Shown: piece by piece, positions 1,211 through 48,778 of the stretch
How the letters are laid out: each line of letters opens with the position of its first letter
How positions within the stretch are numbered: the stretch's first letter is position 1
Assembly: GCF_001988955.1 (NCBI RefSeq)
Contig: NZ_CP014263.1
Coordinates: forward strand, 3,132,001-3,196,000
Source: Spirosoma montaniterrae
GTDB lineage: Bacteria; Bacteroidota; Bacteroidia; Cytophagales; Spirosomataceae
Reading direction: 5' to 3'
DNA: 64,000 nucleotides
Notes under the pieces: model-generated
Seen by the model: the letters and a program-made list of their open reading frames with translations, nothing else
Told to the model about the DNA's origin: nothing
The model's database searches: none
Program-made: the position numbers and the translations under genes

Positions 1211-2128
1211 ATGCTTCTTCCTCCTTTCCTGCGCCCTGGCGATACCGTAGGCGTAGTATCGCCTGCGAGCTGGTTTCCGTATGACGAACTAAAAGAGGGT
1301 CTACGTATTCTGCGCGACGACTGGAAACTGAACGTTATCGAGGGTACAAGCTTGCAGGCTCAGGATGGCCCTTTTGCCGGTTCCGACGAACTGCGCCGGG
1401 CTGATTTACAACAGTTATTCGATAATCCTGACGTTCGGGCGGTGTTTGCCGCGCGAGGTGGTTACGGCTGCTACCGGCTGGTCGATGGCCTGGATCTGGG
1501 TGGTTTGCTGGCACACCCAAAATGGCTCGTCGGTTTCAGCGACGTTACGGTGCTGCTGAGTTTGCTGTATGCCAATGGCATTGGTAGTCTGCATGGTCTG
1601 ATGCCCCGGCAATATGGCCTTTCTGACCGGGCCGAGTCGCTCGAAACGGTTCGGCAGTGGCTCTTTGGCGAACCGCCTGCTATGTACACCGTGCCGACGC
1701 ACCCACTCAACCGACCGGGGCAGGCTACCGGACCGCTGGTAGGCGGCAACCTGACCATGCTCGTCAATTCACTCTCGACCCCGACCGACATTGCTTTTGA
1801 CAACAGCGTGCTGTTCATTGAAGACATAGACGAAACCTTGTTTTCACTCGACCGCATGATGCGGCAACTCCACCGGGCTGGTCGGCTTTCAAACCTGGCC
1901 GGGCTGGTTGTGGGGCAGTTCACCGACATGCGCGATAACAAATCACTTCCTTTCGGCGACGATGCTTTTGGTATTATTTCGGGAGCCGTGTCGGGCTATG
2001 ATTACCCCGTCATGTTCGATTTCCCGGTGGGTCACGTCCCGCAAAACCTCGCTATGCCCGTTGGTGCCAACGTCAGGCTGGAGGTGGGGAATGATGGGGG
2101 AAAAGTGGTTTTTAATATTGAATTCTGA
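1211..2128 (+). CDS. LD-carboxypeptidase (peptidase S66)
   Basis: Cytoplasmic murein-recycling enzyme that removes the terminal D-Ala from tetrapeptides. The protein is 305 aa when started at the ATG before LLPPFLRPGDTVGVVSPAS, the normal S66 N-terminus. An upstream in-frame ATG at 1157 adds 18 atypical aromatic residues and is less likely. The expected Ser-Glu-His triad is visible: Ser110 in LVGFSDVT, Glu in VLFIEDIDE and His in FPVGHVPQN. The arginine motif AARGGYGCYR lies before the serine. The TGA stop is inside the left arm of an inverted repeat (2117-2137). The lytic transglycosylases at 21-25 kb would make related muropeptide substrates, but no operon links them. Confidence 0.9.
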   Translation: MLLPPFLRPGDTVGVVSPASWFPYDELKEGLRILRDDWKLNVIEGTSLQAQDGPFAGSDELRRADLQQLFDNPDVRAVFAARGGYGCYRLVDGLDLGGLLAHPKWLVGFSDVTVLLSLLYANGIGSLHGLMPRQYGLSDRAESLETVRQWLFGEPPAMYTVPTHPLNRPGQATGPLVGGNLTMLVNSLSTPTDIAFDNSVLFIEDIDETLFSLDRMMRQLHRAGRLSNLAGLVVGQFTDMRDNKSLPFGDDAFGIISGAVSGYDYPVMFDFPVGHVPQNLAMPVGANVRLEVGNDGGKVVFNIEF

Positions 2129-2213
2129 ATGTTGAATTAATGCTTACCGCAAGTTCTCCACCTAACCCGCTGCCCTCCATTCAACATTCGCTATTCAACA
2201 TTCAACATTCAAT
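2117..2213. repeat. Inverted repeat, ATTCAAC 7-mer family
   Basis: Left arm 2117-2137 pairs with 2193-2213 (19 of 21 positions). The right side is five consecutive 7-nt units at 2179-2213 (ATTCAAC, ATTCGCT, ATTCAAC, ATTCAAC, ATTCAAT). The left arm contains the stop codon of the LD-carboxypeptidase. The right side ends ten nt before the SDR start codon, so the repeat fills the gap between two co-directional genes. Confidence 0.85.
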
Positions 2214-2222
2214 AGTACCTCT

Positions 2223-3017
2223 TTGTCTTCCTTCCAAAACTCCATCATCTGGATTACCGGCGCATCGTCGGGCATTGGCGAAGCCATTGCACTCGAACTG
2301 GCCCGGTATCGGCCCAAACTGATTCTGTCGGCCCGGCGCGAAGCTGAGCTGCAACGCGTGGCCCGGCAAACCGGATTACCGGCGTCCGACGTGCTGGTGC
2401 TGCCGCTCGACATGGCCGATACGGCCCGGCTTCCCGCGCAGGTCGAGGTGGTACGGCAGCGGTTTGGGCGCGTTGATTATCTGTTTCAAAATGCAGGGAT
2501 CACACAGCGCAGTGCCGTTGTCGATACTGATTTTTCGGTGTATCAGCGGCTGATGGACGTTAATTTTTTCGGCGTTGTGGCCTTGACCAAAGCCGTGCTG
2601 CCGCTGATGCTGGCGCAGGGCAGTGGTCATTTCGTTGTTACGAGCAGTGTAGCAGGCAAGATTGGCACAAAACAACGGTCGGGCTATTGCGCGAGCAAAC
2701 ACGCCCTGCACGGTTTTTTCGACGCGCTCCGGGCCGAAACCCACGATGCGGGGCTGCACGTTACGCTGGTATGCCCCGGCTACATCCAAACGCCTATTTC
2801 ACTCCACGCCCTCGGCCCCGATGGGCGCGTACACGGCAAAATGGACGAGAATCAGCAGCAGGGAATGCCCGCCGACGACTTTGCCCGTCGGCTGCTGCGG
2901 GCCGTAACACGCAAACGTGAAGAGGTCTTCATCGGCGGCAAAGAAGTAGCCGGTGTTTACCTAAAACGGTTTTTACCGGGTCTGCTGTCGCGCATTGTTC
3001 GGGCAATGAAGTCGTAA
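2223..3017 (+). CDS. SDR family NAD(P)-dependent oxidoreductase
   Basis: Short-chain dehydrogenase, 264 aa, of the classical cytosolic type. The Rossmann motif GASSGIGEA is at about 13-21, NAG in LFQNAGITQ, the catalytic Ser region is VTSSVAGKIG and the active-site YxxxK reads YCASKHAL. The C-terminus MKS follows a hydrophobic stretch (FLPGLLSRIVRAM) resembling DHRS7/YqjQ-type SDRs. The substrate cannot be told from sequence. The only start that keeps the nucleotide-binding strand is TTG at 2223. The gene lies 27 nt before the DPP-IV gene and may be co-transcribed with it. Confidence 0.88.
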   Translation: MSSFQNSIIWITGASSGIGEAIALELARYRPKLILSARREAELQRVARQTGLPASDVLVLPLDMADTARLPAQVEVVRQRFGRVDYLFQNAGITQRSAVVDTDFSVYQRLMDVNFFGVVALTKAVLPLMLAQGSGHFVVTSSVAGKIGTKQRSGYCASKHALHGFFDALRAETHDAGLHVTLVCPGYIQTPISLHALGPDGRVHGKMDENQQQGMPADDFARRLLRAVTRKREEVFIGGKEVAGVYLKRFLPGLLSRIVRAMKS

Positions 3018-3044
3018 TTTTTGGCAACTGTTTAGTACATTCCC

Positions 3045-5228: not shown

Positions 5229-5234
5229 GGTTTT

Positions 5235-5323
5235 TTTAAACGCAGAGAGCGCGGAGCCTTCCGCAGAGAACACTCAGAAAACTCTGTATCTCTGCGGAAA
5301 ACTCCGCGCTCTCTGCGTTTAAA
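5235..5323. repeat. Nested inverted repeat, CGCAGAG family, convergent-gene terminator
   Basis: Outer arms 5235-5256 and 5302-5323 are a perfect 22-bp inverted repeat. Inner arms 5259-5269 and 5289-5299 add a perfect 11 bp. The core is rich in GCAGAGA units. It lies between the convergent DPP-IV and Dabb genes, flanked by T and A runs, so it should work as a terminator in both directions. Confidence 0.85.
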
Positions 5324-5326
5324 GAA

Positions 5327-5731: not shown

Positions 5732-5745
5732 GCGTTTGTAAAGGG

Positions 5746-6175: not shown

Positions 6176-6200
6176 AAAGAGTGAGTACGTCTAAAAATAC

Positions 6201-10850: not shown

Positions 10851-10932
10851 GAATAGTGAATGCGAACTCCTGATTAACAAAGTAATACCGGCGTCAGCCT
10901 AATTTGTTGGTCATAGTTAATATTCACTATTC
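10851..10932. repeat. Short inverted repeat between FKBP and protease genes
   Basis: GAATAGTGAAT (10851-10861) and ATTCACTATTC (10922-10932) are a perfect 11-bp inverted pair 60 nt apart, filling the gap between two co-directional genes. They are shorter than the other repeats in this window but in the same position type. Confidence 0.6.
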
Positions 10933-15815: not shown

Positions 15816-15838
15816 GCAACAGGCAGTTCTCGGTAAAT

Positions 15839-15980
15839 AGTTGGCAGTCTTCAGCTAATACAACTCAATTACAATTAGCCCGAATGGCAACAAAGGTACT
15901 TCTTTCTCCCTGCATGGCTACCCGTTACGCCATGTACTGAAAACTCTTTACTGCCAACCGAAGGCTGAAAACTGCCAACT
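15839..15980. repeat. Inverted repeat, AGTTGGCAGT family
   Basis: AGTTGGCAGTCTTCAGC (15839-15855) pairs with 15964-15980 with one mismatch in 17. A second partial copy, ACTGAAAAC...TGCCAACC, lies at 15937-15959. Unlike most repeats here it occupies a divergent promoter region. Confidence 0.65.
15891..15898 (-). promoter_or_regulatory. -7 box for MATE gene
   Basis: Minus-strand TACCTTTG matches TAnnTTTG exactly and gives a leader of about 70 nt. No -33 element is evident at the usual spacing. Confidence 0.4.
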
Positions 15981-15993
15981 GTTTTTCGTACTT

Positions 15994-16764
15994 TTGTTTC
16001 TTTACACGAACTCAGTAATTCCTTTGAAAGAATACGGCAGCAGTATCCAAAAACTGGTTGACAACATGGTCAACATCGAAGATCGGGAGAAGCGAACCCG
16101 TTATGCGCACATCCTGGTCGAATTGATGCGGCAGATTCATCCCAATATGAAAGATGGGCAGGATTACTACAACAAGTTGTGGGACGACCTCTATATCATA
16201 TCAGGATTTACGCTCGACGTCGATAGCCCCTACCCGCCCCCGTCGGAGGAGGCACTTGGCAAAAAGCCACAGCACGTTCCATATAATACGCATCCGCTCA
16301 AATTCAAGCACTTTGGTCAGAACGTTAACCTTCTGGCAGCCAAAGCCGTAGCACTTGAAGATGCCGACGAACGCCGGGCGTTTGTGTCGTATCTGGTTCG
16401 GCTGATGCGCAGCTTTTACCAGATATGGAACAAAGAATCCGTTGAGGAAGAAACTATTTATCAAAGCCTGATCGACATCTCGAACGGTAAGCTTGCCGAT
16501 GATATTCAACTGATTCGCGAGCAGGGTTTGGTAGAATCGACCCCACGCGAACGGGCGGGCGAGGCCGTACAACCGCAGCGGCTCGGCAGCGGTAACTTCA
16601 ACCGCCCAAATCAGGGCAACCGCACGAATCAGGGCAACAACCGCAATTTCCGCAACAACAATCAGGGTAATCGCAACAATCAGGGCAACAACCGCAATTT
16701 CCGCAACGGCGGTGGGCAGGGTAATTCGGGCAATAACCGCAACAATGACCGCCGGAGACGGTAA
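15994..16764 (+). CDS. DUF4290 domain-containing protein
   Basis: A 256-aa cytoplasmic protein of a Bacteroidota-specific family of unknown function. The DUF4290 core covers residues about 9-175 (PLKEYGSSIQKLVDNMVNIEDREKRTRYA and the paired RLMRSFYQIWNKE). After it comes a disordered Asn/Gly/Arg-rich tail with repeated NQGNNRNFRN units and an Arg-rich end, suggestive of RNA binding. The TTG start is chosen because homologues begin about ten residues before xEYGxxxQKLV. A TACTTTTG box overlaps this start (15989-15996), so a later start cannot be excluded. Confidence 0.85.
   Translation: MFLYTNSVIPLKEYGSSIQKLVDNMVNIEDREKRTRYAHILVELMRQIHPNMKDGQDYYNKLWDDLYIISGFTLDVDSPYPPPSEEALGKKPQHVPYNTHPLKFKHFGQNVNLLAAKAVALEDADERRAFVSYLVRLMRSFYQIWNKESVEEETIYQSLIDISNGKLADDIQLIREQGLVESTPRERAGEAVQPQRLGSGNFNRPNQGNRTNQGNNRNFRNNNQGNRNNQGNNRNFRNGGGQGNSGNNRNNDRRRR
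16627..16707 (+). repeat. 30-nt direct repeat encoding NQGNNRNFRN
   Basis: The 30 nt at 16627-16656 recur identically at 16678-16707, a 51-nt offset that keeps frame. They encode the two NQGNNRNFRN units of the DUF4290 tail. Identity at synonymous positions points to recent slippage or unequal exchange. Confidence 0.85.
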
Positions 16765-16770
16765 TTTTTA

Positions 16771-16868
16771 AGTGATGAGCGATGAACGATGAGTGATGAG
16801 TTTGCTGACGCCAGTGTATTTCCTTTTGCGTCAGCAAACTCATCACTCATCGTTCATCGCTCATCACT
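16771..16868. repeat. Perfect 41-bp inverted repeat, GATGARY family
   Basis: Positions 16771-16811 and 16828-16868 are exact reverse complements over 41 nt with a 16-nt loop. The outer part of each arm is built of 7-nt units (GATGAGC, GATGAAC, GATGAGT, GATGAG). The rest is unique sequence including TTTGCTGACGC. It lies between the co-directional DUF4290 and murA genes, 6 nt after a stop and 24 nt before a start. Confidence 0.95.
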
Positions 16869-16892
16869 AACAAATATTCATCATTTACAAGA

Positions 16893-18879: not shown

Positions 18880-18980
18880 GGATGGAACACGGATTGTACG
18901 GATGTTACAGATGAACACCGATAAATTCTACAAAAACATCCGTGTCAATCTGTGACATCCGTGCAATCTGTGTTCCATCC
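18880..18980. repeat. Inverted repeat, ATCCGTGT family
   Basis: Arms 18880-18922 and 18938-18980 pair over 43 positions with about six differences. At least three differences are G/T changes that still allow G-U pairing in RNA. Units such as ATCCGTGTCA and ATCTGTGAC recur every 9-10 nt. It fills the space between a minus-strand gene start and recQ. Confidence 0.85.
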
Positions 18981-30012: not shown

Positions 30013-30103
30013 CATAATGTAACGCGGCTGGAAAGCCGCCGATGCACCAGCGGAGTAGCCCTACTGGATTACAAGGGCGGCTTTCCAGCCGCGTTACGTT
30101 ATG
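30013..30103. repeat. Inverted repeat, GCGGCTGGAAAGCCGCC family
   Basis: Arms 30013-30040 and 30076-30103 match over 28 nt with one difference that allows U-G pairing. Each arm is itself partly palindromic (GGCTGGAAAGCC), so branched folding is possible. It lies between two minus-strand genes. Confidence 0.9.
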
Positions 30104-32925: not shown

Positions 32926-33031
32926 AGGTTGTTACGCAGAGATACGCCGAGCAAAAGAGGTACACCGAGATTCAGTTAAATAGCCTCTGCGTATCTTCCT
33001 GATTGCTCTGCGAAACTCTGTGCAACAACCT
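32926..33031. repeat. Imperfect inverted repeat, CGCAGAG family
   Basis: Left arm 32926-32970 begins AGGTTGTTACGCAGAG; right arm 32985-33031 ends CTCTGTGCAACAACCT. The arms pair along their outer ~25 nt with several mismatches. It is the same family as 5235-5323 and 42661-42764 and lies between convergent genes. Confidence 0.75.
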
Positions 33032-37131: not shown

Positions 37132-37938
37132 ATGCTGCATTTTCGCAAAACCCTCTTTCGGATTCTGGAAACTTCGGCGGGCAACCGCCGGGGCATTAGC
37201 CTTCTGTTCAACGTTGTGCTGATCACGATCATCACGCTTAATGCCATCGCTATTGTACTGAATACGGTTCCGGCTTATAATCAACGATTTGCCCGCCTGT
37301 TTTATGACCTGGAATTATTTTCAGTTATGTTTTTCACGATTGAGTACATAGCCCGCTTATGGGTTTGTGTGGAGCAGGAGCGGTATCAGCACTGGTTTTG
37401 GGGGCGATTACGATACATGCTCTCTACGCCCGCCATTATTGATTTCTTAGCTATTTTCCCTTTCTATTTTACGCTGTTCGCTACCGATCTGGCAGTTGTG
37501 CGGATTCTGCGGCTATTCCGTATTTTCAGACTGTTCCGTATCTCCAAATACTCACACGCCGTTCGGGTGATTCGGGCGGTTGTCGACAACACAAAAGAGG
37601 AGTTGATTCTGGTGCTGGTATTCGTGGTATTCATGCTTATCATTATTTCGAGCGTCGTCTACTACATCGAACACCCGGTTCAGCCCGACAAATTCAGTAG
37701 CATTCCGGCTACCATGTGGTGGGGTACGAGTGCCATGACCACCGTTGGTTACGGCGACCTTCACCCGATTACACCCCTCGGCAAATTTATTGGTGGATTG
37801 GCTTCGATATTAGGCATCATGCTATTCGCCCTGCCAACGAGTATTCTGGTATCCGGCTTCAACGAATACATGCGTACACACCGGAAATCGCCCACCACCC
37901 GCCAATGCCCGCACTGTGGGAAGGTGTTGAATGATTGA
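37132..37938 (+). CDS. Voltage-gated-type potassium channel
   Basis: A 268-aa six-TM channel. S1 is about residues 22-45, S4 carries spaced arginines (RILRLFRIFRLFRISKYSHAVRVIR), and the pore loop WWGTSAMTTVGYGDLHP has filter TVGYG at 204-208. S6 is GLASILGIMLFALPTSILVSGF. The C-terminus CPHCGKVLND looks like half of a zinc ribbon, as in KvAP-like bacterial channels with CxxC tails. The TGA stop (37936-37938) is inside an inverted repeat. It is probably co-transcribed with the MFS gene. Confidence 0.92.
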   Translation: MLHFRKTLFRILETSAGNRRGISLLFNVVLITIITLNAIAIVLNTVPAYNQRFARLFYDLELFSVMFFTIEYIARLWVCVEQERYQHWFWGRLRYMLSTPAIIDFLAIFPFYFTLFATDLAVVRILRLFRIFRLFRISKYSHAVRVIRAVVDNTKEELILVLVFVVFMLIIISSVVYYIEHPVQPDKFSSIPATMWWGTSAMTTVGYGDLHPITPLGKFIGGLASILGIMLFALPTSILVSGFNEYMRTHRKSPTTRQCPHCGKVLND

Positions 37939-38092
37939 GTGATGGAGTGATAGAATGATAGAATGATAGAATGATAGAATGATAGAATGGAGCGCAGTGG
38001 TCTGATTCGATAATTCAACCATTCAACCATTCAATCATTCAATCATTCAATCATTCAATCACTCAATCACTCAATCTTTTCCATCATTCAAC
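37926..38092. repeat. Long inverted 8-mer arrays between convergent genes
   Basis: Left side 37926-37989 includes five exact GATAGAAT units (37949-37988). Right side 38012-38092 is a run of AACCATTC, AATCATTC and AATCACTC 8-mers. The two sides pair imperfectly in the same 8-nt register around a 22-nt unique centre. Both flanking genes, the K+ channel and the minus-strand glycosidase, terminate with TGA codons inside the arrays. Confidence 0.9.
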
Positions 38093-39361
38093 CTTTTTCA
38101 TTACTTCGGGGTAGGTTCCCAAACGCTGAAACGCCCACAGGCTTTCGATGGTCGATTCAGCCCCGGAATTGCGGTTTACTACGCCATTTGGCCCGATGCC
38201 ATCGTAGCCCCGGCCCGTAGTACGATCATACATGGGGGTGCTGGCCGGGTTTTTGCCCATGAACCAGCCTGCCAACTGCGCGGCCAAGTCGGCGTAACGC
38301 GGCTCTTTGGTTTGATCATACGCTTCGAGCGTGGCCCAGATCATAGGGCGAATGCCATACGCGATTTGCGAAAACTGGCTCTCGTTCAGCAACTTCACGG
38401 CACTTCCCGACTGCTCGACCGCAAACGATTCCAGATAATTCCTTTGAATAAGGTACGGGTAAAAGTTATCGATTTCGCGCCGGGCGGCTGCTTGCCACGC
38501 GGGCTTATTCAACACCTTGCCTGCCCGTAGCAGTGCATAAGCCTGATCACTCGCGTAGGCGTGCCAGTTGTTCTCAAAACTCAGAAACGCGCTGTGTGGA
38601 AACTGATTGGCATCGCCGAATTGCATCGCCAGAATTCCCTCGGCCAATTGCTCCATCAGCCGTAGCCCCTCCGCCGAGGGCGTTTGCTGATAGCGATTGA
38701 GCAACCCCAGCAGCATTACAGCCGCCTGATCGCTGCCCGACCCGAACGGCAACCACTTCGGCACCGACACGCCCCGAATAAATGTAAAATCGCGCGGTTT
38801 GCCGCCAAAATCGCGAAGCATCGCGGTTAGCAGCCGTTGGTTGGCCTGCTCGATGCGCGTTGCCAGTGCGGGGTCCGTTTTCTGGAAATATGGCTGCACC
38901 TCCGTCAGGTGCCAAAATGCCCGCCACGACCAGAAGTTTGGTTCGGCCACACTGGTTTTGAAGGTTTTGTTAATCGTTCGGTCGGGCCACAGAAAGTTAT
39001 AGAAGTACCCGTTTTCGGCCTGCAATTGCAGCACAAACTCGGTCATCTGGCGTAGTTTGGTCTGCTTGTCGGCGTTGGTGGCAAGGTCGGGTTCGTTAAC
39101 CAGTAATATAGCGGCCCGCGAAACATCGTCAACGCAGGTAAATCCCTCGTCGGCATCGGTTACGAGCCGGTAGTCGGGGGCTTCGCTGTAGATGGCAACA
39201 GTGCCGACGTCGGCTCCGTTGGGCAGTTTTACGGTTTGATACAGCCGGTCGAGATGGCTCAGATTGACGTACCGATTGGCCGGTGTGGTGGTCTGCGCTG
39301 CGGGTTGGTCTTTCCGGCAGGAGAGCGAGAAAATGATAATAAAAACGCTGAGTAGTCGCAT
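38084..39361 (-). CDS. Lipoprotein, predicted (alpha/alpha) six-hairpin glycosidase
   Basis: A 425-aa lipoprotein with lipobox FIIIFSLSC. The body is helical with Trp- and Asp-rich segments (TDADEGFTCVDDVSRAAIL, ENGYFYNFLWPDRTIN, EPNFWSWRAFWHLTEV, FGSGSDQAAVMLLGLLNRY, NNWHAYASDQAYALLRAG). This pattern is that of alpha/alpha-toroid glycosidases; I cannot name the GH family. VDD and SDQ acids are candidate catalytic residues. It is the last gene of the SusCD/ABC carbohydrate run. The ATG at 39361 abuts the next inverted repeat; a longer frame would run into the repeat. Confidence 0.7.
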   Translation of the reverse strand: MRLLSVFIIIFSLSCRKDQPAAQTTTPANRYVNLSHLDRLYQTVKLPNGADVGTVAIYSEAPDYRLVTDADEGFTCVDDVSRAAILLVNEPDLATNADKQTKLRQMTEFVLQLQAENGYFYNFLWPDRTINKTFKTSVAEPNFWSWRAFWHLTEVQPYFQKTDPALATRIEQANQRLLTAMLRDFGGKPRDFTFIRGVSVPKWLPFGSGSDQAAVMLLGLLNRYQQTPSAEGLRLMEQLAEGILAMQFGDANQFPHSAFLSFENNWHAYASDQAYALLRAGKVLNKPAWQAAARREIDNFYPYLIQRNYLESFAVEQSGSAVKLLNESQFSQIAYGIRPMIWATLEAYDQTKEPRYADLAAQLAGWFMGKNPASTPMYDRTTGRGYDGIGPNGVVNRNSGAESTIESLWAFQRLGTYPEVMKKVE

Positions 39362-39365
39362 AAAT

Positions 39366-39494
39366 GGAACACAGATTAAACGGATGCTACGGATAAACAC
39401 GGATTTTGATGAAACGCGGATTGTACGGATGAACACAGTTTATTTGAAAAATGGAAATCTGTGTTCATCCGTAGCATCTGTATCATCCGTGTTC
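39366..39494. repeat. Inverted repeat, ATCCGTGT family
   Basis: Left arm 39366-39405 pairs with 39456-39494 with about six differences over 40 nt; a third partial unit lies at 39411-39438. It is the same family as 18880-18980. It occupies the gap between the MalG-like permease and the glycosidase gene, starting 5 nt upstream of the latter's start codon. Confidence 0.85.
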
Positions 39495-39507
39495 CTCTTA
39501 TAAATTT

Positions 39508-40314: not shown

Positions 40315-40321
40315 GATTTTG

Positions 40322-40437
40322 AGTGGTTGAATGATTGAATGAGTGAGTGGTTGAATGATAGAATGGTTGAATGGATGCGTTACCTGACTACTTCATTCAA
40401 TCATTTAACCACTCACTCATTCAATCATTCAACCATT
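40322..40437. repeat. Inverted 8-mer repeat between ABC permease genes
   Basis: Arms 40322-40365 and 40394-40437 match over 44 nt with three differences. Units are GTGGTTGA, ATGATTGA and ATGAGTGA. The TGA stop of the upstream permease (40429-40431) is within the right arm. Confidence 0.92.
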
Positions 40438-41283
40438 TTCCTGTTCCACATACCGTTTTTGAATCACTACCACGAACAGAATAATCAGCGCGAAGCAAAA
40501 ACCGAGCGTGGCCGAATAACCCATGTGGTAGTATTGAAATGCCTGTTTGTAAATATACATCACTGCCGAAAGGGTGCTGTTGAGCGGCCCGCCCTCGGTC
40601 ATGATATACGGTTCGATGAACAGCGAAAACCCGCCAATGGTCGATAGCACCACAACCGTGAAAATGGTTGGGTTGATAATCGGTAACGTAATGTGCCGGA
40701 ACTTTTGCCATTCGGTTGCGCCCTCTAAATCAGCCGCTTCGTAGTAGGCCACCGGCACCGATTGCAAGCCCACTAAAAACAGAATCACGTATAAACCCAC
40801 GTTTTTCCAGGTCGCCATGAGCGCGATGGAGTACATCGCCACGTCGGGATCGTCGAGCCACGACACGCGCGGCAGGGCCAGCGATACCAGCACCCGGTTA
40901 ATCAGTCCCGCGTTGAAGCCCAGCAATTGCTGCCACAAAATCGTGACGACCACGCCCGACACAATCACGGGCAGAAAGAAAGCCGCCCGGAAAAAACTCG
41001 CCCCCCGAATCGTTCGGTTCAGCAACTCGGCCAGCAGCAATGCCACCGCAATTTGCAGTGGAATATGCACGACCAGAAACCGCAGCGTGTTCAGAATGGC
41101 CTGCCAGAACAGCCGATCTTTCAGCACCCGCTCGTAGTTTGCCAGCCCCACCCAGCGCATCGGGGCAATGATGTTCCAGTCGTGGAAGGTCAGCACCACC
41201 GAAAACACCACTGGAAACGCCACAAACAGGCCAAAATGCAGCAAATACGGGCTGGCGAGGAGGTAGGGCGTGAGCTTCTTCAT
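40429..41283 (-). CDS. Carbohydrate ABC transporter permease, MalF/UgpA-type
   Basis: A 284-aa six-TM inner-membrane subunit. The start LTPYLLASPYLLHFGLFVAFPVVFSVVLTFHDWN is typical of the first CUT1 permease, and the EAA loop is YYEAADLEGATEWQKFRHITLPIINPTIF. It should form a heterodimer with the MalG-type protein. No ATPase gene is present in the cluster, so a shared MsmK/MalK-like ATPase from elsewhere is presumed. It is flanked on both sides by 8-mer inverted repeats. Confidence 0.93.
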   Translation of the reverse strand: MKKLTPYLLASPYLLHFGLFVAFPVVFSVVLTFHDWNIIAPMRWVGLANYERVLKDRLFWQAILNTLRFLVVHIPLQIAVALLLAELLNRTIRGASFFRAAFFLPVIVSGVVVTILWQQLLGFNAGLINRVLVSLALPRVSWLDDPDVAMYSIALMATWKNVGLYVILFLVGLQSVPVAYYEAADLEGATEWQKFRHITLPIINPTIFTVVVLSTIGGFSLFIEPYIMTEGGPLNSTLSAVMYIYKQAFQYYHMGYSATLGFCFALIILFVVVIQKRYVEQENG

Positions 41284-41306
41284 ATTGAATGACTGAATGA
41301 CTGAAT

Positions 41307-41416
41307 GATTGAATGATAGAGTGGTTGAATGGTTGAATGATAGAGTGGTTGAATATTCCTTCTATTCCATTCAATCATTCTATCATTCAACCATTCAACC
41401 ACTCTATCATTCAACC
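41307..41416. repeat. Inverted 8-mer repeat between binding-protein and permease genes
   Basis: Arms 41307-41354 and 41369-41416 match over 48 nt with three differences, around a 14-nt loop. The TGA stop of the binding-protein gene (41411-41413) lies in the right arm. The array continues to 41286, three nt from the permease start codon. Confidence 0.93.
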
Positions 41417-42772
41417 CCCCAATAGCACGTCTACTGCCTTTGCTGCGTCGGCAATGGCGGCTTCGGGCGTTTTTTTGTTGAAAATCACGCAGGCTTCGTA
41501 CTCCTGCGAAATGATGTCGAAAACCTCCACAATCACCTCGCAGTTGTCGACGCCTTTGATGTAGCGCGTTTGTTCGGCGAAGGGTTTCAGGCGCGGGTTG
41601 CGTTGCAGAAACGGCGTAAAAAATGGGTCGGTGTCCAACTGTTTCCGACGCGGAAACTGCCCCGTTAGCTCCAGCAGCCGTAAATCGCCCGGCTGATCGA
41701 TGAGTGTTTTGATAAACGCCCACGCGGTTGTAGGGTCGCGGCAGGTGTTGAATACCACAATGTTTTTCGGATCGCCGTAGGTGTATGTCGGACCAGTGTG
41801 ACCATCGGGAACAGGCATCGGGTAGAAGTTATACGCCAGCCCCGACTCTTTGTATTTCTCAAGATAGCTCACCTGCCACGGCCCGGTAAACTGGGTAGCG
41901 ATGCGGCCATCGAGAAACGGGTCGCGGGTGGCCGACAGCCGTTCGCGGGCGAAGTAGTTTTTCCGATACAATTCCTGCAAAAACCGAAAGACGCCAATCG
42001 CGTGCTGGTTATTGAAAGCCGCCCGATTGTTCTGAACGAGCGGTGCCCCGTTCGACGCAGCCAGATATAACGGATAGAAATTGAACAGCCGCTGATACCA
42101 GATTGCCTTCACTTCGGTATAGCCTAACCACCGGTCTACATAGCCGTCGCTATCGCGGTCTTGCTTCACGGCCTCGCCTGCCCGCAGGTAACGCCCGTAG
42201 GTGTACGGTGGCCCTTCGCCCGTGCCGGGTCTGACTATATTCGTGTTGCAGAGCGTCATAATCGGGTTCACTTTCCACGGCACCTGATAGATATGCCCAT
42301 CAGACGAGGTGATTTCGCGCAGTACGGCACTGTCGCAGCGGGCCGTTATGAATGCCCGGAAGCCCGGAATCGTGTCGAGCGGCACCAGCACACCGGCTTT
42401 GGCGTACATTTCTACGCTGCCCTGCCACATGTTGGCGTAGATGTCGGGCGTGGTTTTGCCCACCACCGACGCCAGAATTATCTCCTCGCTCGATTGGCCT
42501 TCCGGGATAGGCTGATAACGCAGCGGCTTATCGGGCCGGGTGCGTTGCCAACGGTCGGCAAACTCTTTGGTAAAGGCAATTTCAGGTCCGTTGTTTGAGC
42601 ACCAGAACGTCATTGGCCGCGCATCAGTGGTGTCGTTGCGCTGACAGGCGGAGAAGAAAAGGTTATTACACAGAGATACACCGAGATAGCACAGAGACAC
42701 ACCGAGTTTTTTTAGCATTCTCTGTGCATCTCTTCTTTTCTCTGCGTATCTCTGTGTCATAGCCCTTCTCAT
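41411..42772 (-). CDS. ABC transporter solute-binding lipoprotein (family 1)
   Basis: A 453-aa sugar-binding lipoprotein. Lipobox LFFSAC is at about 38-43. The mature part (TFWCSNNGPEIAFTKEFADRW, ILASVVGKTTPDIYANMWQGS, ATQFTGPWQVSYLEKY, DPKNIVVFNTCRDPTTAWAFIKTL) follows CUT1 binding proteins. The ATG at 42772 overlaps the TAA of the LamG gene (TAATG), suggesting coupling. The first ~40 codons, including the hydrophobic signal (GVSLCYLGVSLCNNLFFSAC), are read from an intergenic-type inverted repeat. A later ATG at 42718 is possible and also lies in the repeat. Confidence 0.88.
   Translation of the reverse strand: MRRAMTQRYAEKRRDAQRMLKKLGVSLCYLGVSLCNNLFFSACQRNDTTDARPMTFWCSNNGPEIAFTKEFADRWQRTRPDKPLRYQPIPEGQSSEEIILASVVGKTTPDIYANMWQGSVEMYAKAGVLVPLDTIPGFRAFITARCDSAVLREITSSDGHIYQVPWKVNPIMTLCNTNIVRPGTGEGPPYTYGRYLRAGEAVKQDRDSDGYVDRWLGYTEVKAIWYQRLFNFYPLYLAASNGAPLVQNNRAAFNNQHAIGVFRFLQELYRKNYFARERLSATRDPFLDGRIATQFTGPWQVSYLEKYKESGLAYNFYPMPVPDGHTGPTYTYGDPKNIVVFNTCRDPTTAWAFIKTLIDQPGDLRLLELTGQFPRRKQLDTDPFFTPFLQRNPRLKPFAEQTRYIKGVDNCEVIVEVFDIISQEYEACVIFNKKTPEAAIADAAKAVDVLLGG
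42661..42764. repeat. Inverted repeat, CACAGAG family, overlapping a coding start
   Basis: Left arm 42661-42706 and right arm 42720-42764 pair imperfectly; the outer 20 nt match best (ACACAGAGATAC on both). It lies inside the 5' end of the binding-protein gene rather than between genes. Confidence 0.8.
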
Positions 42773-43929: not shown

Positions 43930-45432
43930 TTAAAACCGCAGGGCTTTGTTGGTATCCCGTTCGCTTTGCGGGATGGGGAAATAGCGGGTCGTTTCGTACC
44001 TGAACTGCGGTTTGTCGCGCAGAGCGGCCTGGGCGTAGTCGCGACCGTAGCGCATGACGTCGAAGTAGCGGTGGAACTCGAAGCCGAGTTCTACGCGCCG
44101 TTCATGGCGGATGGCCTCGCGCAGTGCCGATTGGCTCACGTTCGCTACGTTGGGCAGCAGGCCGGGCGGCACGGCGGGCGTTGCGCTTAGGCTACGGTCG
44201 TTGAGGTAGCTTTCGCGGGCGCGTCTGCGAACCTGATTCAACAGCGGCAAGGCTTCGGCAGTGCGTCCCAGTTCGTTGAGTGCTTCGGCCTGAATCAGCA
44301 GGACTTCAGCATAGCGTAGGGTTACGTAGTTCAGATTTCCATCGCCTTTGGTAGCTACCGACACCTCGGCCAGCGGCTGTACGTGCTTTTTGTTCAGATA
44401 CCCCGTTGGCGACCACGACGGATCGAACGCTTCGCCGTTGACCCACAGACGCCCGGCCCGGCCCACCGTGTAATCTAACCGTGGATCGACCACACCCGCC
44501 GACGTCTTCTCGAACTCATCGACAAAATTTTGCGTCGGCACGTTGAAGAAATAGCCATTTTCGCCGGGCCGTGGGGCAAACCACTGGTTCAGCCGATTGC
44601 CCGTAAACGGCACCTGCGCGGTGAGGTGTTGCACCGAAAAAATAGCTTCGGCACTGTTCTTGGCATCCTGACTGAAATTCTGTGAATACACCGGCAGCAG
44701 CGCGTAATTGCCAAGAGCCTGCACCTGCCCGGCGGTAGTAGCGGCCTGCTGCCATTTTTGCTGGAACAGATACGCCTTTGCCAGCAGGGCGGTGGCGGCT
44801 CCTTTGGTGGCCCGGCCTATGTTGCCGCCCGTATGACTGGCGGGCAGATTTTTGATAGCCTCCTGCAAATCCGGCTCGATACCCTGCTCATAGATTATGT
44901 TGACCGGCGACTGCGGAATCTGCAACTGATCGGCATTTTTCGTCTCCAGCAGCAGCGGCACAGGGCCGTAGATGTTTACCAAATAGAAGTAGTACAACGC
45001 CCGCAGAAACCGCGCTTCGCCCAAAATCCGGGTCTGCACGGCGGGTGTAATGTTACTAATTTTCGGTACGCGGGCCAGCACCTGATTGCAGCGGGCAATA
45101 CCTTCATACAACTCCCCCCACTGCGACTCGATGACGCCGTTGCTCGGAAAAATCTGGAAATTATCGACCAGCCCAATATCGGCCTGATCGCCGGGGTCGC
45201 CCCCTTTGGCCGCATCGTCGGAAGCTACGTCGCCGAATACCCACAACCGGTTTCGGTCGCTCGAAAACGTCAGGGGCGTGTAGGCCGCGTTGATTGCCAG
45301 CACAGCCTGGGCCTCGTTCTGGTAGAATGTGCCGTCGGAATATGTGCCGAGCAATTGCTCATCCAGATAGTTGCGGCATCCCGCTGCGGTGAGCAGGGTA
45401 AGTAGTATTGTGGTGGATATAATGTGTCTCAT
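43930..45432 (-). CDS. susD: SusD/RagB family glycan-binding lipoprotein
   Basis: A 500-aa surface lipoprotein, lipobox LLTLLTAAGC. SusD landmarks are the start LDEQLLGTYSDGTFYQNEAQAVLAINAAYTPL, the TPR segment RFLRALYYFYLVNIYGPVPLL, GAATALLAKAYLFQQKW and the C-terminal RHERRVELGFEFHRYFDVMRYGRD plus YFPIPQSERD. It caps the SusC pore and binds oligosaccharide. A perfect 35-bp inverted repeat separates it from susC. Confidence 0.96.
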   Translation of the reverse strand: MRHIISTTILLTLLTAAGCRNYLDEQLLGTYSDGTFYQNEAQAVLAINAAYTPLTFSSDRNRLWVFGDVASDDAAKGGDPGDQADIGLVDNFQIFPSNGVIESQWGELYEGIARCNQVLARVPKISNITPAVQTRILGEARFLRALYYFYLVNIYGPVPLLLETKNADQLQIPQSPVNIIYEQGIEPDLQEAIKNLPASHTGGNIGRATKGAATALLAKAYLFQQKWQQAATTAGQVQALGNYALLPVYSQNFSQDAKNSAEAIFSVQHLTAQVPFTGNRLNQWFAPRPGENGYFFNVPTQNFVDEFEKTSAGVVDPRLDYTVGRAGRLWVNGEAFDPSWSPTGYLNKKHVQPLAEVSVATKGDGNLNYVTLRYAEVLLIQAEALNELGRTAEALPLLNQVRRRARESYLNDRSLSATPAVPPGLLPNVANVSQSALREAIRHERRVELGFEFHRYFDVMRYGRDYAQAALRDKPQFRYETTRYFPIPQSERDTNKALRF

Positions 45433-45445
45433 AACGTTATTGTTT

Positions 45446-45541
45446 ACCCCACCCCCGTCCCCTCCCCGTTAGGGAGGGGTGAAGCCTGAAAAGCTTCGCG
45501 TTATGCACCCCTCCCTAACGGGGAGGGGACGGGGGTGGGGT
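45446..45541. repeat. Perfect 35-bp GC-rich inverted repeat between susC and susD
   Basis: Positions 45446-45480 and 45507-45541 are exact reverse complements. Each arm contains its own palindrome (CCCCTCCC, loop CGTTA, GGGAGGGG), so it resembles a paired REP (BIME) element. The 26-nt centre has a further hairpin GAAGC/GCTTC. Same family as 48690-48778. Confidence 0.96.
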
Positions 45542-45546
45542 GATTT

Positions 45547-48500
45547 TCAAAATCCTACATTCAGTCCGAACATATATGTTCTTGCTGCGGGGTACGTGCC
45601 CCAGTCGATGCCAACGGCTACGTCGCCCCGAAACTGTTCGCCATTGACATTGTCGCTGGTATGCTGTTCGGGGTCTAAGCCGGGGTATTTTGTGAACGTC
45701 AGCAGGTTTTGCCCGGCCACGTACATCCGCACACTCGACGCGCCAAACTTCTGACTCAGCTTGCCCGGCAGCGTATAACCCACTTGCAGGTTTCGCAGAC
45801 GCGTGTAAGCACCGCTTTCCAGAAAACGGGTAGACGGCTGCTTGTTGTTGGCAGCCCCCCGCCACGACACCCTCGGCTGTGTGCTGCTGGTGCCTTCGCC
45901 CCGCCAACGCTCCTCCACAACCCGCTGCGTAACATTAAACGAGCGATAAAACCCTTCGATATCCGTGGCGACCTGATAAAAAACCGAGTTGCCCGACACG
46001 CCCTGAAAAAACACCGACAGGTCGAAGTTGCGCCACTGGGCGTTGGCAGTCAGGCCGTAGGTGAGCGTTGGAATCGGGCTGCCAACATGAGCGCGGTCGT
46101 CCTGCGTAATGCGGCCATCTCCGTTGGTATCGGCAAACTTCACGTCGCCGGGGCGAACGTCGTTGCTCTGGAACGCGCTTGTGAAAATCTCGCTGGCGTT
46201 CTGGAAAATACCCGCCTGTTGCAGCAGGTAAAAGGACCCAATGGGGTGGCCCGGCTCGGTCAGTGTGGCAAATATACCATTGTCGACGCGCCCGCCCGGA
46301 ATGGGCCGACCATCGCTGAGCGACAGTACTTTGTTGCGAATAAACGCGCCATTGGCCGTAATGTCGTAACTGACGGCACCTTTGCGGTCGCGGTAGATAA
46401 GGTCAAGTTCCAGCCCCCGGTTTTCGACCCGACCGGCGTTTACGAATGGTACGCCCGACGTACCGCCCGAACGTGGCAGCGGCACCGGCACCAGAATATC
46501 AGACGTCGTTTTAATGAAATAATCGGCGGTTAGCTGGATACGGTTGCGCAGAAAGCTGGCATCGATACCCACGTCGGTTTGGGTCGATGATTCCCAGCGC
46601 ACATTGCTGTTACCCCGGCCCACGATAGCGTAGCCGTTCTGCGTTTGCTGCGGGTTGCCAAGCGGATAATTGAACCCGCTACCCACAACAGACGCATACG
46701 GATAATTACCGATGTCCTGATTGCCCAACTGCCCCGCACTGACCCGCAGTTTCAGGGCCGAGACGACATTCGTGAATCGCTGGAAAAACTGTTCCTGATC
46801 GATGTTCCAGCCCACCGAACCCGACAGGAACGTGGCGTACCGATTCTGGGGTGAAAACCGCGACGAACCATCGCGCCGGACGTTGGCCGTGACCAAATAG
46901 CGATTCTGGTAGGCGTAGTTGACCCGCGCAAACTGCGAAAACAGTTTCCACCGCTGATCGCCTTCCGACGCCTGCCGACCGAGCGGATCATTGCCTACAC
47001 CGAGAAAGCGCAGGTTTGGCGACTGGTCGATGAAATTACGGTCGGAGCCAACCAAATCGCGGCCAATGTTCTGAATGGCCTCGGTGCCGACCAACACCGA
47101 TACGTCGTGCTTGCCACCAAATGTGCGGGTGTAGGTCAGCGTATTGTTCCAGTTCAGGTTACTGAGTGTACTGATGCGGTTGCTGAGCGTGGCCGGGCTG
47201 TTGATACGGCTATTAGTACCCCAGTTTTCGTTGAATCGTTTCTGATTAACGAACTGTAGATCAAGCCCGCCATCGGTACGAAACCGTAATCCTTCCAGAA
47301 TCTGCCACTCGCCGAAGAGGTTGCCGAATGCCCGGTATTGCCGCTCTTTATTGTCCTGTTTCAACGCTAATGCAACAGGGTTGTAGCCATCGCCATAGAG
47401 ATCAGGGCGGGCGGGGAGATCGATGTAGTCGCCGGTGGCGGGGTCAGTAATGGCAATAGCCGGTGCGCGAAACAGCGCGTAGCGAACAATGCTGCCACCG
47501 TTGCCACCAAATCCATCGCCCGAACTGCCCACGATGTTGCGCGTCGAAAACGTAAGATTCAGGTTTGTACCCACTTTCACCTTTCCGCCCATGTCGGTAT
47601 CAACGCTGGTGCGGAGGGCGTAGCGTTTGTAGCCGGAGTTGAGCACAATACCCTGCTGCTCGAAATAATTACCCGAAATCAGGTAATGCGACCGCTCGGT
47701 GCCGCCACTGAAACTAAGCTGGTAGTTCTGAATGGGTGCCGTGCGGAAAATGGCCCGTTGCCAGTCGGTGTTGGGCAGTTGGCTGGGGTCGTCGGTAATA
47801 AGTTTACGGAACAGCGTTGGGTCGGCGAGCTCGGCGTTATCGGTATTGGCGGCTTCGTTGTAAATTTCAACGTACTGCGCCGTGTTCGCCATCGGGATCA
47901 GTCGGCTTGCCTGTTGCAGCCCGGTATAACTATTGAATGTGATGCGCGGTGCGCCCGTTTGCCCGCGCTTGGTGGTAACAACAATTACACCGTTGGCGGC
48001 CCGCGCTCCGTAGATAGCCGCCGACGACGCATCTTTCAGCACCGACATGGTTTCAATATCGGCGGGTGTCAGAATGCTGAACGCGTCCTTGGTTGGAACG
48101 CCATCGACAATGAACAAGGGACTGTTGTCATTAATCGTACCAACGCCCCGGATGCGTACAGCCACGCCTTCGCCTGGCGCGCCCGACGATTGCGTCACGC
48201 GTACGCCAGCGGCTTTACCCTGCAACGCCTGATCGATACCTGCCAGCGGCAACCGGCCAATATCTTTTGCCGTTACGGTTGAAACGGCCCCCGTGAGGTC
48301 GCTTTTTTTCTGGGTGCCATAACCAATTACTACTACTTCATTGAGCGATTTACTGTCTTCGACCAGCGTGATGGTTAGTTCGGAACGATTGCCTACGGCC
48401 ACCTCCTGAGTGACGTAGCCGATATACGAAACCTGGAGGATGCTACTCTGATCGGGTACGGTGATCTGGAAACGTCCGTTCGGGTCGGTGGTGGTGCCGC

Positions 48501-48669
48501 GCTGCGTCCCTTTGATCACAACACTAACGCCCGGCAATGGCTGGTTTTTTTCGTCGCGCACTACGCCCGAAACGGGTACGTCGGCCAGCGCGGTGAGGGT
48601 AGTGAGAAAAAATAGCAGGAAGCCGACGATTGGTTTCCCACGCAGGCAGGACGGTATCGGTTTTTTCAT
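45547..48669 (-). CDS. susC: SusC/RagA TonB-linked outer-membrane protein
   Basis: A 1040-aa outer-membrane glycan transporter. Signal peptide (GFLLFFLTTLTALA), then carboxypeptidase-like domain VSGVVRDEKNQPLPGVSVVIKG, then the SusC signature NEVVVIGYGTQKKSDLTGAVSTV. The plug (RIRGVGTINDNSPLFIVDGV) and barrel end in YPAARTYMFGLNVGF. It works with the SusD encoded next. There is no adjacent anti-sigma, hybrid two-component or SusR-like regulator. The start at 48669 is preferred to 48696 because it opens the signal peptide. GC-rich inverted repeats lie both upstream and downstream of the gene. Confidence 0.96.
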   Translation of the reverse strand: MKKPIPSCLRGKPIVGFLLFFLTTLTALADVPVSGVVRDEKNQPLPGVSVVIKGTQRGTTTDPNGRFQITVPDQSSILQVSYIGYVTQEVAVGNRSELTITLVEDSKSLNEVVVIGYGTQKKSDLTGAVSTVTAKDIGRLPLAGIDQALQGKAAGVRVTQSSGAPGEGVAVRIRGVGTINDNSPLFIVDGVPTKDAFSILTPADIETMSVLKDASSAAIYGARAANGVIVVTTKRGQTGAPRITFNSYTGLQQASRLIPMANTAQYVEIYNEAANTDNAELADPTLFRKLITDDPSQLPNTDWQRAIFRTAPIQNYQLSFSGGTERSHYLISGNYFEQQGIVLNSGYKRYALRTSVDTDMGGKVKVGTNLNLTFSTRNIVGSSGDGFGGNGGSIVRYALFRAPAIAITDPATGDYIDLPARPDLYGDGYNPVALALKQDNKERQYRAFGNLFGEWQILEGLRFRTDGGLDLQFVNQKRFNENWGTNSRINSPATLSNRISTLSNLNWNNTLTYTRTFGGKHDVSVLVGTEAIQNIGRDLVGSDRNFIDQSPNLRFLGVGNDPLGRQASEGDQRWKLFSQFARVNYAYQNRYLVTANVRRDGSSRFSPQNRYATFLSGSVGWNIDQEQFFQRFTNVVSALKLRVSAGQLGNQDIGNYPYASVVGSGFNYPLGNPQQTQNGYAIVGRGNSNVRWESSTQTDVGIDASFLRNRIQLTADYFIKTTSDILVPVPLPRSGGTSGVPFVNAGRVENRGLELDLIYRDRKGAVSYDITANGAFIRNKVLSLSDGRPIPGGRVDNGIFATLTEPGHPIGSFYLLQQAGIFQNASEIFTSAFQSNDVRPGDVKFADTNGDGRITQDDRAHVGSPIPTLTYGLTANAQWRNFDLSVFFQGVSGNSVFYQVATDIEGFYRSFNVTQRVVEERWRGEGTSSTQPRVSWRGAANNKQPSTRFLESGAYTRLRNLQVGYTLPGKLSQKFGASSVRMYVAGQNLLTFTKYPGLDPEQHTSDNVNGEQFRGDVAVGIDWGTYPAARTYMFGLNVGF

Positions 48670-48689
48670 AAATCGTTGAGTAAAATGGC

Positions 48690-48778
48690 ACCCCACCCCA
48701 ACCCCTCCCCGTTAGGGAGGGGCTTATTAAGCCGGATGGTTTTAGTCCCTCCCTAACGGGGAGGGGTTGGGGTGGGGT
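48690..48778. repeat. Perfect 32-bp GC-rich inverted repeat upstream of susC
   Basis: Positions 48690-48721 and 48747-48778 are exact reverse complements with the same CCCCTCCCCGTTAGGGAGGGG palindromic core (21 nt, perfect stem) as the susC-susD repeat. It starts 20 nt upstream of the susC start codon, so it is probably in the leader. Confidence 0.95.

What the first reader, a model, noticed from the sequence alone, without database searches (positions are those of the whole stretch)
2117..48778. Fifteen intergenic inverted repeats from several periodic families
Inverted repeats occur at 2117, 5235, 10851, 15839, 16771, 18880, 30013, 32926, 37926, 39366, 40322, 41307, 42661, 45446 and 48690. 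They do not share one sequence. Families include ATTCAAC 7-mers, GATTGAAT-like 8-mers, GATGARY 7-mers, ATCCGTGT ~10-mers, GCAGAG units and GC-rich REP-like palindromes. Within each site both arms use the same units, so arms seem to co-evolve or be copied from each other. In the ATCCGTGT and GCGGCTGG families several arm differences are G/T changes that keep G-U pairing. That points to selection on RNA structure, or to a copying process that makes foldback arrays from short words.
Basis: partly seen in the sequence, partly recalled or inferred. Interest (0 to 1): 0.75.

Follow-up and report, generated by a model that had tools for sequence, protein, structure and literature searches.

The report
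Word-built hairpins behind stop codons
A Spirosoma bacterium carries DNA hairpins built from short repeated words, most of them directly behind genes; in the places that could be followed, related species often keep a hairpin but with both arms rewritten together, which suggests that the arms are copied from each other and that the hairpins may help to end translation or protect messenger RNA.

Summary
An independent scan refound 14 of the 15 inverted repeats; the fifteenth (10851) is a real but weak 11-bp stem. Forty sampled stretches plus the window (864 kb of a 5.8-Mb Spirosoma chromosome) hold 168 such hairpins, one shuffle of each stretch none. Most are intergenic and follow a stop codon closely (median 5.5 nt in 102 co-directional gaps); in the window 11 of 15 do.

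Arms co-evolve. Two close Spirosoma species show 81 pairing-preserving double changes, about 14 doubles being expected. In two gene gaps followed through 28 and 29 species, a species' arms pair on average better with each other than with other species' arms. Two of 24 compared loops are clearly inverted. G-U intermediates are not favoured (46 G-U, 48 A-C). I read this as replication template switching rather than stepwise RNA selection.

Three Y1 (RAYT/IS200-like) genes exist; only the GCGGCTGG-like class lies beside one.

New lead: in several families the 5' arm is dense in TGA and often stops all three frames. This recurs in some relatives (G004, G012, Hymenobacter), not in all tested. Function is inferred. 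Verdict: new variant of a known kind.

The parts
2113..2217 (.). hairpin, ATTCAAC/TTGAAT 7-mer words, 22-25 nt arms; overlaps the end of the S66 peptidase gene (stop at 2128)
5232..5326 (.). hairpin, GCAGAG/CGCGGAG words, 35-38 nt arms, convergent gap (stops 5228 + and 5327 -)
10851..10932 (.). weak 11-bp hairpin in the FKBP -> tail-specific protease gap; stronger hairpins in the same gap of 20 of 28 Spirosoma genomes read
15835..15984 (.). imperfect hairpin, 21-nt arms (TTGGCAGTCTTCAGC / GCTGAAAACTGCCAAC), 108-nt loop; divergent gap
16764..16875 (.). hairpin, GATGARY 7-mer words plus TTTGCTGACGC, 48-nt arms, DUF4290 -> murA gap
18880..18980 (.). hairpin, CACGGAT/ATCCGTGT words, 43-nt arms; divergent gap
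30013..30103 (.). GC-rich REP-like hairpin GTAACGCGGCTGGAAAGCCGC in a divergent gap; a related class lies on both sides of a Y1-transposase match elsewhere (L155)
32926..33031 (.). hairpin, ACGCAGAGATACGCCGAG words, 29-nt arms, convergent gap
37927..38091 (.). hairpin, TTGAATGA/GATAGAAT 8-mer array, 58-62 nt arms, convergent gap; the + gene's stop codon (37936-37938) lies in the first word
39360..39501 (.). hairpin, CACGGAT/ACGGATG words, 41-47 nt arms, just after the stop (39508) of a minus-strand permease gene
40320..40437 (.). hairpin, TTGAATGA 8-mer array, 42-nt arms, overlaps the stop of the minus-strand permease gene 40429-41283
41285..41416 (.). hairpin, TTGAATGATAGAGTGG 8-mer array, 46-nt arms, between solute-binding protein gene and permease gene
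42658..42767 (.). hairpin, ACACAGAGAT words (period 10), 23-29 nt arms, between LamG-domain gene and solute-binding protein gene
45446..45541 (.). GC-rich hairpin ACCCCACCCCCGTCCCCTCCCCGTTAGGGAGGGG, 36-nt perfect arms, between TonB receptor gene and SusD gene
48690..48778 (.). GC-rich hairpin of the same class, divergent gap (TonB receptor gene and DNA polymerase III clamp-loader gene)

Best explanation
Most sites are post-stop foldback arrays: hairpins that fill the gap behind a stop codon and whose arms are built from short (mostly 7-8 nt) words. SHOWN: they are not chance, most sit close behind stop codons, arms change together between two close species, and in two gaps followed through the genus the place is kept in about two thirds of species while the letters are rewritten. 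INFERRED: the arms are kept alike mainly by replication template switching (one arm copied onto the other, sometimes inverting the loop), and selection keeps a hairpin in the place. The likeliest use is at the transcript end: an intercistronic or 3'-end RNA hairpin, as proposed for REPs; in the TGA-word families the 5' arm may also stop stray ribosomes in several frames. A minority (30013, and GTAG-tagged families elsewhere in the genome) look like REP/RAYT-type mobile elements.
For: Chance: 168 hairpins in 864 kb, 0 in one shuffle of each stretch. Place: 102 co-directional, 31 convergent, 15 divergent, 10 inside predicted genes, 10 at edges; per 10 kb of gap 9.5, 11.1 and 5.2. In co-directional gaps the hairpin starts a median 5.5 nt after the stop, 82 of 102 within 30 nt of it (45 of 102 within 30 nt of the next start); convergent median 3 nt. 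The hairpin overlaps the gene end in 47 of 132 ends. Of 44 arms (20 nt or more) with a clear period, 43 have 7, 8 or 14; shuffles give 2.8 in all, spread over 5-14. G004/G005: 92 hairpin comparisons (both directions, so many orthologues count twice) give 88 double changes, 81 still Watson-Crick, against about 14 doubles expected. Own-arm against other-species stem score: FKBP->Tsp, 28 species, 15.1 vs 9.6; DUF4290->murA, 29 species, 13.5 vs 8.1; 0 of 5000 permutations each. Loop inversion in the murA gap (CTGTTCGAAAA vs TTTTTCGAACAG), and a second one; 0 of 20000 shuffles each. No G-U excess. TGA 271 in 5' arms, 10 in 3' arms of 89 word-family hairpins; all frames stopped in 40 of 89 against 20.8 (s.d. 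2.8) for dinucleotide-shuffled arms. Stops in all frames within 45 nt, long-loop hairpin ends vs ends without hairpin: own 38 of 115 vs 29 of 287, G004 17 of 49 vs 43 of 310, G012 3 of 7 vs 0 of 16, Hymenobacter 5 of 7 vs 3 of 55.
Against: Selection with quick double substitution could also give co-evolving arms; the missing G-U excess (94 and 47 informative mismatches) does not exclude it. Sites were picked for arm pairing, so within-site likeness is biased upward. The permutations ignore relatedness, and own arms beat every other species' arm in only 9 of 28 and 13 of 29. Clear loop inversions are 2 of 24; the second was not flagged by the automatic comparison and I chose the stretch by eye. 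At the first, one mismatched pair of G004 is matched in G005, but one matched pair is mismatched there. A genus-wide loop test is weak (inverted matches 22 vs 11 expected, 7 vs 3.9). No hairpin of score 12 in 8 of 28 and 11 of 29 gaps; the 15835 gap has none in 4 of 4 relatives, though S. fluviale has one. Stop arrays: families D-I and K have few TGA and little or no asymmetry; G005 6 of 18 vs 28 of 179 (P 0.09), G031 1 of 2 vs 5 of 46, G018 0 of 7 vs 2 of 32, G019 0 of 4 vs 3 of 42; in G004 short-loop ends are high as well, 11 of 37. TGA polarity near against far from stops is reversed in G005 (11:7 near, 8:2 far). T-rich outer ends are commoner in word families (22 of 89 with 6 or more T of 11) than at random positions (8%). 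Some copies are dispersed near-identical elements with like loops. No expression data.
Confidence: 0.55

Rival explanations
1. Classic RNA-structure selection: arms stay complementary because single-arm mutations are removed or compensated one after the other, often through G-U pairs; no special copying process is needed.
For: Pairing is kept in 81 of 88 double changes and most hairpins sit at gene ends.
Against: No G-U preference on the sense strand: 46 vs 48 and 22 vs 25. Inverted loops are not explained. Several changes in concert in one stem, e.g. 5 in one 25-bp stem.
Confidence: 0.25
2. Mobile miniature elements (REPIN/MITE-like) spread by RAYT or another transposase; the families are mobile families.
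For: Three Y1 transposase genes, one with hairpins on both sides. In G004/G005, hairpins of a GTGCCACGG class are present in one species and absent from the other (1 seen from G004, 3 from G005). Some families have near-identical dispersed arms.
Against: Two gaps keep hairpins with a gap-specific word class in 20 of 28 and 18 of 29 species, which speaks for evolution in place. Loops and unit order mostly differ from site to site.
Confidence: 0.25
3. They are ordinary intrinsic transcription terminators.
For: Place behind stop codons and in convergent gaps. Some short-loop stems in the genus have A/T tracts. 22 of 89 word-family hairpins have 6 or more T of 11 at an outer end, against 8% of random positions.
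Against: Only 6 of 89 word-family hairpins reach 7 T of 11. 143 of 175 intergenic hairpins of score 13 or more have loops over 10 nt. Many lie in short gaps between co-directional genes, apparent operons.
Confidence: 0.15
4. Neutral by-product: short tandem repeats expand and fold back wherever sequence is unconstrained, without any function.
For: Word dictionaries differ by species and flare up sporadically, e.g. 309 and 0 matches in two members of one genus.
Against: Lower density in divergent gaps and close docking to stop codons; presence in the same gaps in most species read; TGA polarity stronger near stops than far from them in the own genome (240:9 near, 45:11 far) and G004 (38:6, 6:9), not in G005.
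Confidence: 0.2

Closest known systems
REP / REPIN elements with RAYT transposases (PMC2817692, PMC3116915: search listing only; PMC3733652: passages read)
   Same: Abundant extragenic palindromes, many downstream of coding regions; termini of GTAG REPs often supply the TAG stop to flanking ORFs (PMC3733652). The 30013-like class lies beside a Y1-transposase gene.
   Different: GTAG and CGTC REP stems are 5-13 bp with one consensus per family (PMC3733652); here stems are mostly 20-60 bp of repeated words with site-specific order, and no Y1 gene is tied to the word families.
TAACTGA intergenic direct repeats of Beggiatoaceae, cyanobacteria and a few Bacteroidetes (PMC4679880: passages read)
   Same: Sporadic 7-nt word arrays in gaps; forward repeats give stops in all three frames (stated in the paper).
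   Different: Those are direct repeats, mostly pointing at start codons; here arrays are paired as foldback hairpins, mostly behind stop codons, and many words are used.
Template-switch mutations in RNA hairpins and short inverted repeats (PMC8794818: abstract and passages read; PMC8604942: passages read)
   Same: Multi-base compensatory change, arm homogenisation and loop (spacer) inversion as signatures.
   Different: Shown there for rRNA (bacteria included), microRNA and yeast coding genes; here about 19 hairpins per 100 kb in one bacterial genome.
BrickBuilt MITE of Porphyromonas gingivalis (PMC4596501: abstract and section list read)
   Same: Intergenic Bacteroidota element with tandem units and inverted-repeat ends.
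   Different: One family with 23-nt units, 19 copies in one strain, 49-591 nt from genes; described as a tandem array with small inverted-repeat ends.

Membership tests
REP/REPIN-RAYT | short conserved palindromic core shared by all members of a family | tested here: not met
   Word families share words, not one core; unit order differs by site. Exceptions: GATGAG+TTTGCTGACGC, GTAGAGACGC and GCGGCTGG classes have a shared core.
REP/REPIN-RAYT | cognate RAYT gene flanked by the elements | tested here: inconclusive
   3 Y1_Tnp genes; L155 has GTAACGCGGGTGG-type hairpins on both sides of the match, related but not identical to the 30013 class. None seen for the word families.
REP/REPIN-RAYT | extragenic, downstream of genes | tested here: met
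   148 of 158 classifiable hairpins intergenic; 82 of 102 co-directional ones within 30 nt of a stop
Intrinsic terminator | stem with short loop followed by a T run | tested here: not met
   word families: 6 of 89 with 7 or more T of 11 at an outer end, 22 of 89 with 6 or more; a minority may qualify
Template-switch-maintained inverted repeats | arm homogenisation | tested here: met
   selection could mimic it
Template-switch-maintained inverted repeats | loop/spacer inversion between orthologues | tested here: met
   2 clear of 24 orthologous pairs, one of them chosen by eye; genus-wide test weak
Known RNA family | match to an Rfam model | tested here: not met
   0 matches in the window at gathering scores

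The most novel reading that the evidence does not exclude
A lineage of Bacteroidota ends many of its genes with self-renewing stop arrays: foldback hairpins whose 5' arm, read from either side, is a run of TGA-bearing 7-8 nt words that stop all three reading frames, while the hairpin marks the mRNA end. The place is inherited and the wording drifts by species. Replication template switching rewrites both arms at once, so structure is kept without selection on single base pairs.
Probability: 0.25. Interest if true: 0.8.

Novelty: new variant of a known kind. Interest (0 to 1): 0.62.

Why it matters
How long stems stay paired while their letters change is an old question. Here is a bacterium with, by extrapolation from 168 in 864 kb, about a thousand hairpins; in its genus arms change in concert in fixed gene gaps, and some loops are inverted: a natural laboratory for template switching. 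If the TGA polarity proves functional, it would be a failsafe for translation end built from word arrays. It also warns that compensatory change in bacterial 3' regions need not mean RNA-level selection.

Tried and rejected
G-U-preserving change as proof of RNA selection: not borne out. RAYT as a general explanation: only one hairpin class fits. Intrinsic terminators in general: few strong T runs, though T-rich ends are commoner than at random. Inverted loops among dispersed GATGAG copies: not used, because insertion in either orientation gives the same picture. The stop codon as the seed of the arrays: TGA words also follow TAA and TAG genes (own stop TGA in 28 of 49 TGA-word ends, 23 of 81 other hairpin ends, 216 of 573 genes), so it is not the sole origin. 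Window-wide comparison with G031, G018, G019 and G012: synteny is too short; only the 10851 gap (G018, G019) and the 15835 and 16764 gaps (all four) were reached; 15835 has no hairpin in any of the four, 16764 one in G019 only (score 12). A first identity table ignored strand and was redone. Rows dropped before counts: 2 of 30 Tsp loci (L242, L244: gap not the same) and 1 of 30 murA loci (L147: truncated); 6 of 36 genomes had no locus returned in each search. Gene ends come from my own simple ORF predictor, not a curated annotation. Family labels are mine, set by regular expression; 42 of 168 hairpins are unassigned and a few are misfiled (e.g. window 18880 and L107 2291), which was mended only for the former and only. 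Paper searches that listed no description of these hairpins in Spirosoma or Hymenobacter: (open-licence full text; I read listings, and six papers in abstract or passages).
Full report
Setting. The window is C1:3132001-3196000 of a 5.80-Mb single-contig genome. I place it in Spirosoma because the nearest named hit of its MurA is S. fluviale (96%; records very near the window may be left out there). Among the other genomes of its genus whose murA was compared, the closest is 84.5% identical in DNA (G012). Close comparison was therefore made in another pair, G004 and G005 (95.6% in murA; aligned blocks 91-95%).

The observation. Fourteen of the 15 sites were refound by an independent stem scan; three window shuffles gave 0, 2 and 0 hairpins. 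The weak site 10851 has 11-bp arms. In 40 evenly spaced 20-kb stretches plus the window there are 168 hairpins of score 14 or more, 107 of score 20 or more, and none in one shuffle of each stretch. Recurrent families, by my own labels, include TTGAATGA, GATGARY, TGAAAAG, ACACAGAG, CACGGAT, CCAGGATT, AACAGCC, GTTGTAG, GTGAAAGAG, a TCGTCGGATTATGCTGACTGAC class, GC-rich CCCCACCCC/CCCCTCCCC, GTAGAGACGCAA and GCGGCTGGAAAGCCGC; 42 of 168 are unassigned and a few misfiled. Among arms of 20 nt or more with a clear best period (44), 12 are of 7, 17 of 8, 14 of 14 and 1 of 10. Tandem Repeats Finder also gives periods of 9, 10 and 18 at the CACGGAT and ACACAGAG sites of the window, so 7-8 is not universal.

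Place. With a simple gene predictor (coding share 77%), 148 of 158 classifiable hairpins lie between genes; they are about half as dense in divergent gaps (5.2 per 10 kb) as in co-directional (9.5) and convergent (11.1) ones. In co-directional gaps they begin a median 5.5 nt after the upstream stop; 82 of 102 lie within 30 nt of it, 45 of 102 within 30 nt of the next start, and 85 are nearer to the stop. In 47 of 132 gene ends the hairpin overlaps the gene end. In the window 11 of 15 sites follow a stop and 4 (15835, 18880, 30013, 48690) lie in divergent gaps. The minus-strand run from the TonB receptor gene (45547-48696) through SusD, a LamG-domain protein, a solute-binding protein and two permeases to 38084-39436 carries a hairpin at six of its seven gene ends.

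Arms change together. In all 12 families compared, the mean likeness of the two arms of a site exceeds the mean of each arm's best match at any other site (e.g. CAACAG 0.90 vs 0.71, TTGAATGA 0.87 vs 0.78), and the sister arm is the best match at 69 of 117 sites; sites were chosen for arm pairing, so this is biased upward. The cleaner test is between G004 and G005. Ninety-two hairpin comparisons (from both genomes, so orthologues often appear twice) gave, for short-loop stems, 56 double changes (53 Watson-Crick) against 7.9 expected, and for long-loop stems 32 (28 Watson-Crick) against 6.5, at an arm divergence of about 9% and a flank divergence of 9.6%; 178 pairs with a gap were set aside and 133 pairs changed on one side only. 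Many of these stems look terminator-like; only a few are word arrays.

Fixed places, changing words. The FKBP->tail-specific-protease gap and the DUF4290->murA gap were read in 28 and 29 Spirosoma genomes. A hairpin of score 12 or more is found in 20 of 28 and 18 of 29. The first gap uses words like GAAAGAGTGAATGAG, the second words like GATGAATTATGA, usually with other order and letters in other species. A species' own arms pair on average better than mixed arms (15.1 vs 9.6; 13.5 vs 8.1; no permutation of 5000 reached the observed mean), though they beat every other species' arm in only 9 of 28 and 13 of 29. The permutations ignore relatedness. In other gaps the place is not kept: at 15835 none of four relatives has a hairpin, though S. 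fluviale has one of other letters.

Copying or selection. If single mutations were tolerated as G-U pairs in the transcript, mismatches should be G-U rather than A-C on the sense strand. They are 46 vs 48, and 22 vs 25 for single changes between G004 and G005. In the murA gap the loop is CTGTTCGAAAA in G004 and TTTTTCGAACAG, its inverse, in G005; one mismatched pair of G004 is matched in G005 and one matched pair is mismatched there. A second orthologous hairpin also has an inverted loop; no shuffle of 20000 reached either match, but the second was not flagged by the automatic comparison and I chose its stretch by eye. Of 24 orthologous loops compared, 2 are clearly inverted and 2 more, very short, are ambiguous. 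A genus-wide loop test gives only a weak excess of inverted matches (22 vs 11, 7 vs 3.9 expected). Arm homogenisation and loop inversion are reported marks of template switching (PMC8794818 and PMC8604942, passages read). I take template switching as the likelier keeper of pairing, with selection deciding which hairpins stay.

A polarity that was not in the finding. Because a hairpin is symmetric, its 5' arm is the arm met first from either side. In 89 word-family hairpins TGA occurs 271 times in 5' arms and 10 times in 3' arms; 40 of 89 5' arms stop all three frames, against 2 of the 3' arms and 20.8 (s.d. 2.8) after dinucleotide shuffling. The asymmetry comes from the TTGAATGA (94:3), GATGARY (95:0), TGAAAAG (36:1), TCGTCGGATT (20:0), TTGAAT (9:0) and GTGAAAGAG (6:0) classes; all-frame arms come mainly from TTGAATGA (12 of 15), GATGARY (15 of 16), TGAAAAG (8 of 13) and TTGAAT (3 of 3). 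The other named classes have at most 7 TGA each in the 5' arm and little or no asymmetry. Long-loop hairpin ends against ends without a hairpin, stops in all frames within 45 nt: own 38 of 115 vs 29 of 287; G004 17 of 49 vs 43 of 310; G012 3 of 7 vs 0 of 16; five Hymenobacter loci 5 of 7 vs 3 of 55; G005 6 of 18 vs 28 of 179; G031 1 of 2 vs 5 of 46; G018 0 of 7 vs 2 of 32; G019 0 of 4 vs 3 of 42. Short-loop ends are 1 of 23 in the own genome but 11 of 37 in G004. TGA in 5' against 3' arms of long-loop hairpins is 240:9 near stops and 45:11 far from them in the own genome, 38:6 and 6:9 in G004, 16:0 and 4:2 in Hymenobacter, but 11:7 and 8:2 in G005. A period of 7 or 8, not a multiple of 3, walks TGA through the frames; that link is my inference. 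The all-frame stop property was noted in print for TAACTGA direct repeats (PMC4679880, passages read).

Spread. In 80 named murA loci from the collection (1.48 Mb, nearly all Bacteroidota by their titles) 58 hairpins of score 16 or more were found, none in shuffles. Among the up to five printed per locus, word-array types appear in Hymenobacter (L048, L050, L075) and S. fluviale, perhaps in one Pedobacter (L070), and hardly elsewhere. TTGAATGATTGAATG flares up in single species of several genera of the family (367 own, 309 in G060 but 0 in its congener G081). GATGARY arrays occur in 64 of 395 genomes of the phylum, with 40 or more matches in 8 of them. Dictionaries are therefore sporadic.

RAYT. 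Three Y1-transposase genes were found in the genome. One has GTAACGCGGGTGG hairpins on both sides of the Pfam match (L155), a class related to site 30013, which is best filed as REP-like.

What is not shown. No transcript data were available, so terminator, mRNA-protecting, stop-array and neutral roles are inferences from place and letters. Literature coverage is limited to open-licence papers.

Noticed in passing
L153, L154, L155 (own genome, C1:747499, 659963 and 3915248): Three Y1 (RAYT/IS200-like) transposase genes; L155 with GTAACGCGGGTGGAAACCCGC hairpins on both sides of the match, L153 near a CGTCGCGTTAGCGAC hairpin.
   Followed up: partly
window 48690-48778; L084 9171-9264; L103 18741-18844; L104 11578-11644; L108 15138-15205: Loops of two unlike hairpin families (CCCCTCCCC and GTAGAGACGCAA) often hold a CCGGATGG/CCATCCGG-like motif.
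   Followed up: no
L156-L195 (G004/G005): A hairpin class with inner GTGCCACGGTT and varying outer arms, present in one of the two species and absent from the other at several places.
   Followed up: partly
L048, L050, L075 (Hymenobacter): Word-array hairpins with other dictionaries (e.g. TGAGACGGTGAGATATGAG, TGGGGTCTTGGGGTCTT).
   Followed up: partly
window 16599-16707: 51-nt / 18-nt direct repeats at the end of the DUF4290 gene (Asn/Arg/Gly-rich tail by eye) directly before the 16764 hairpin; similar tails are seen in other species.
   Followed up: no
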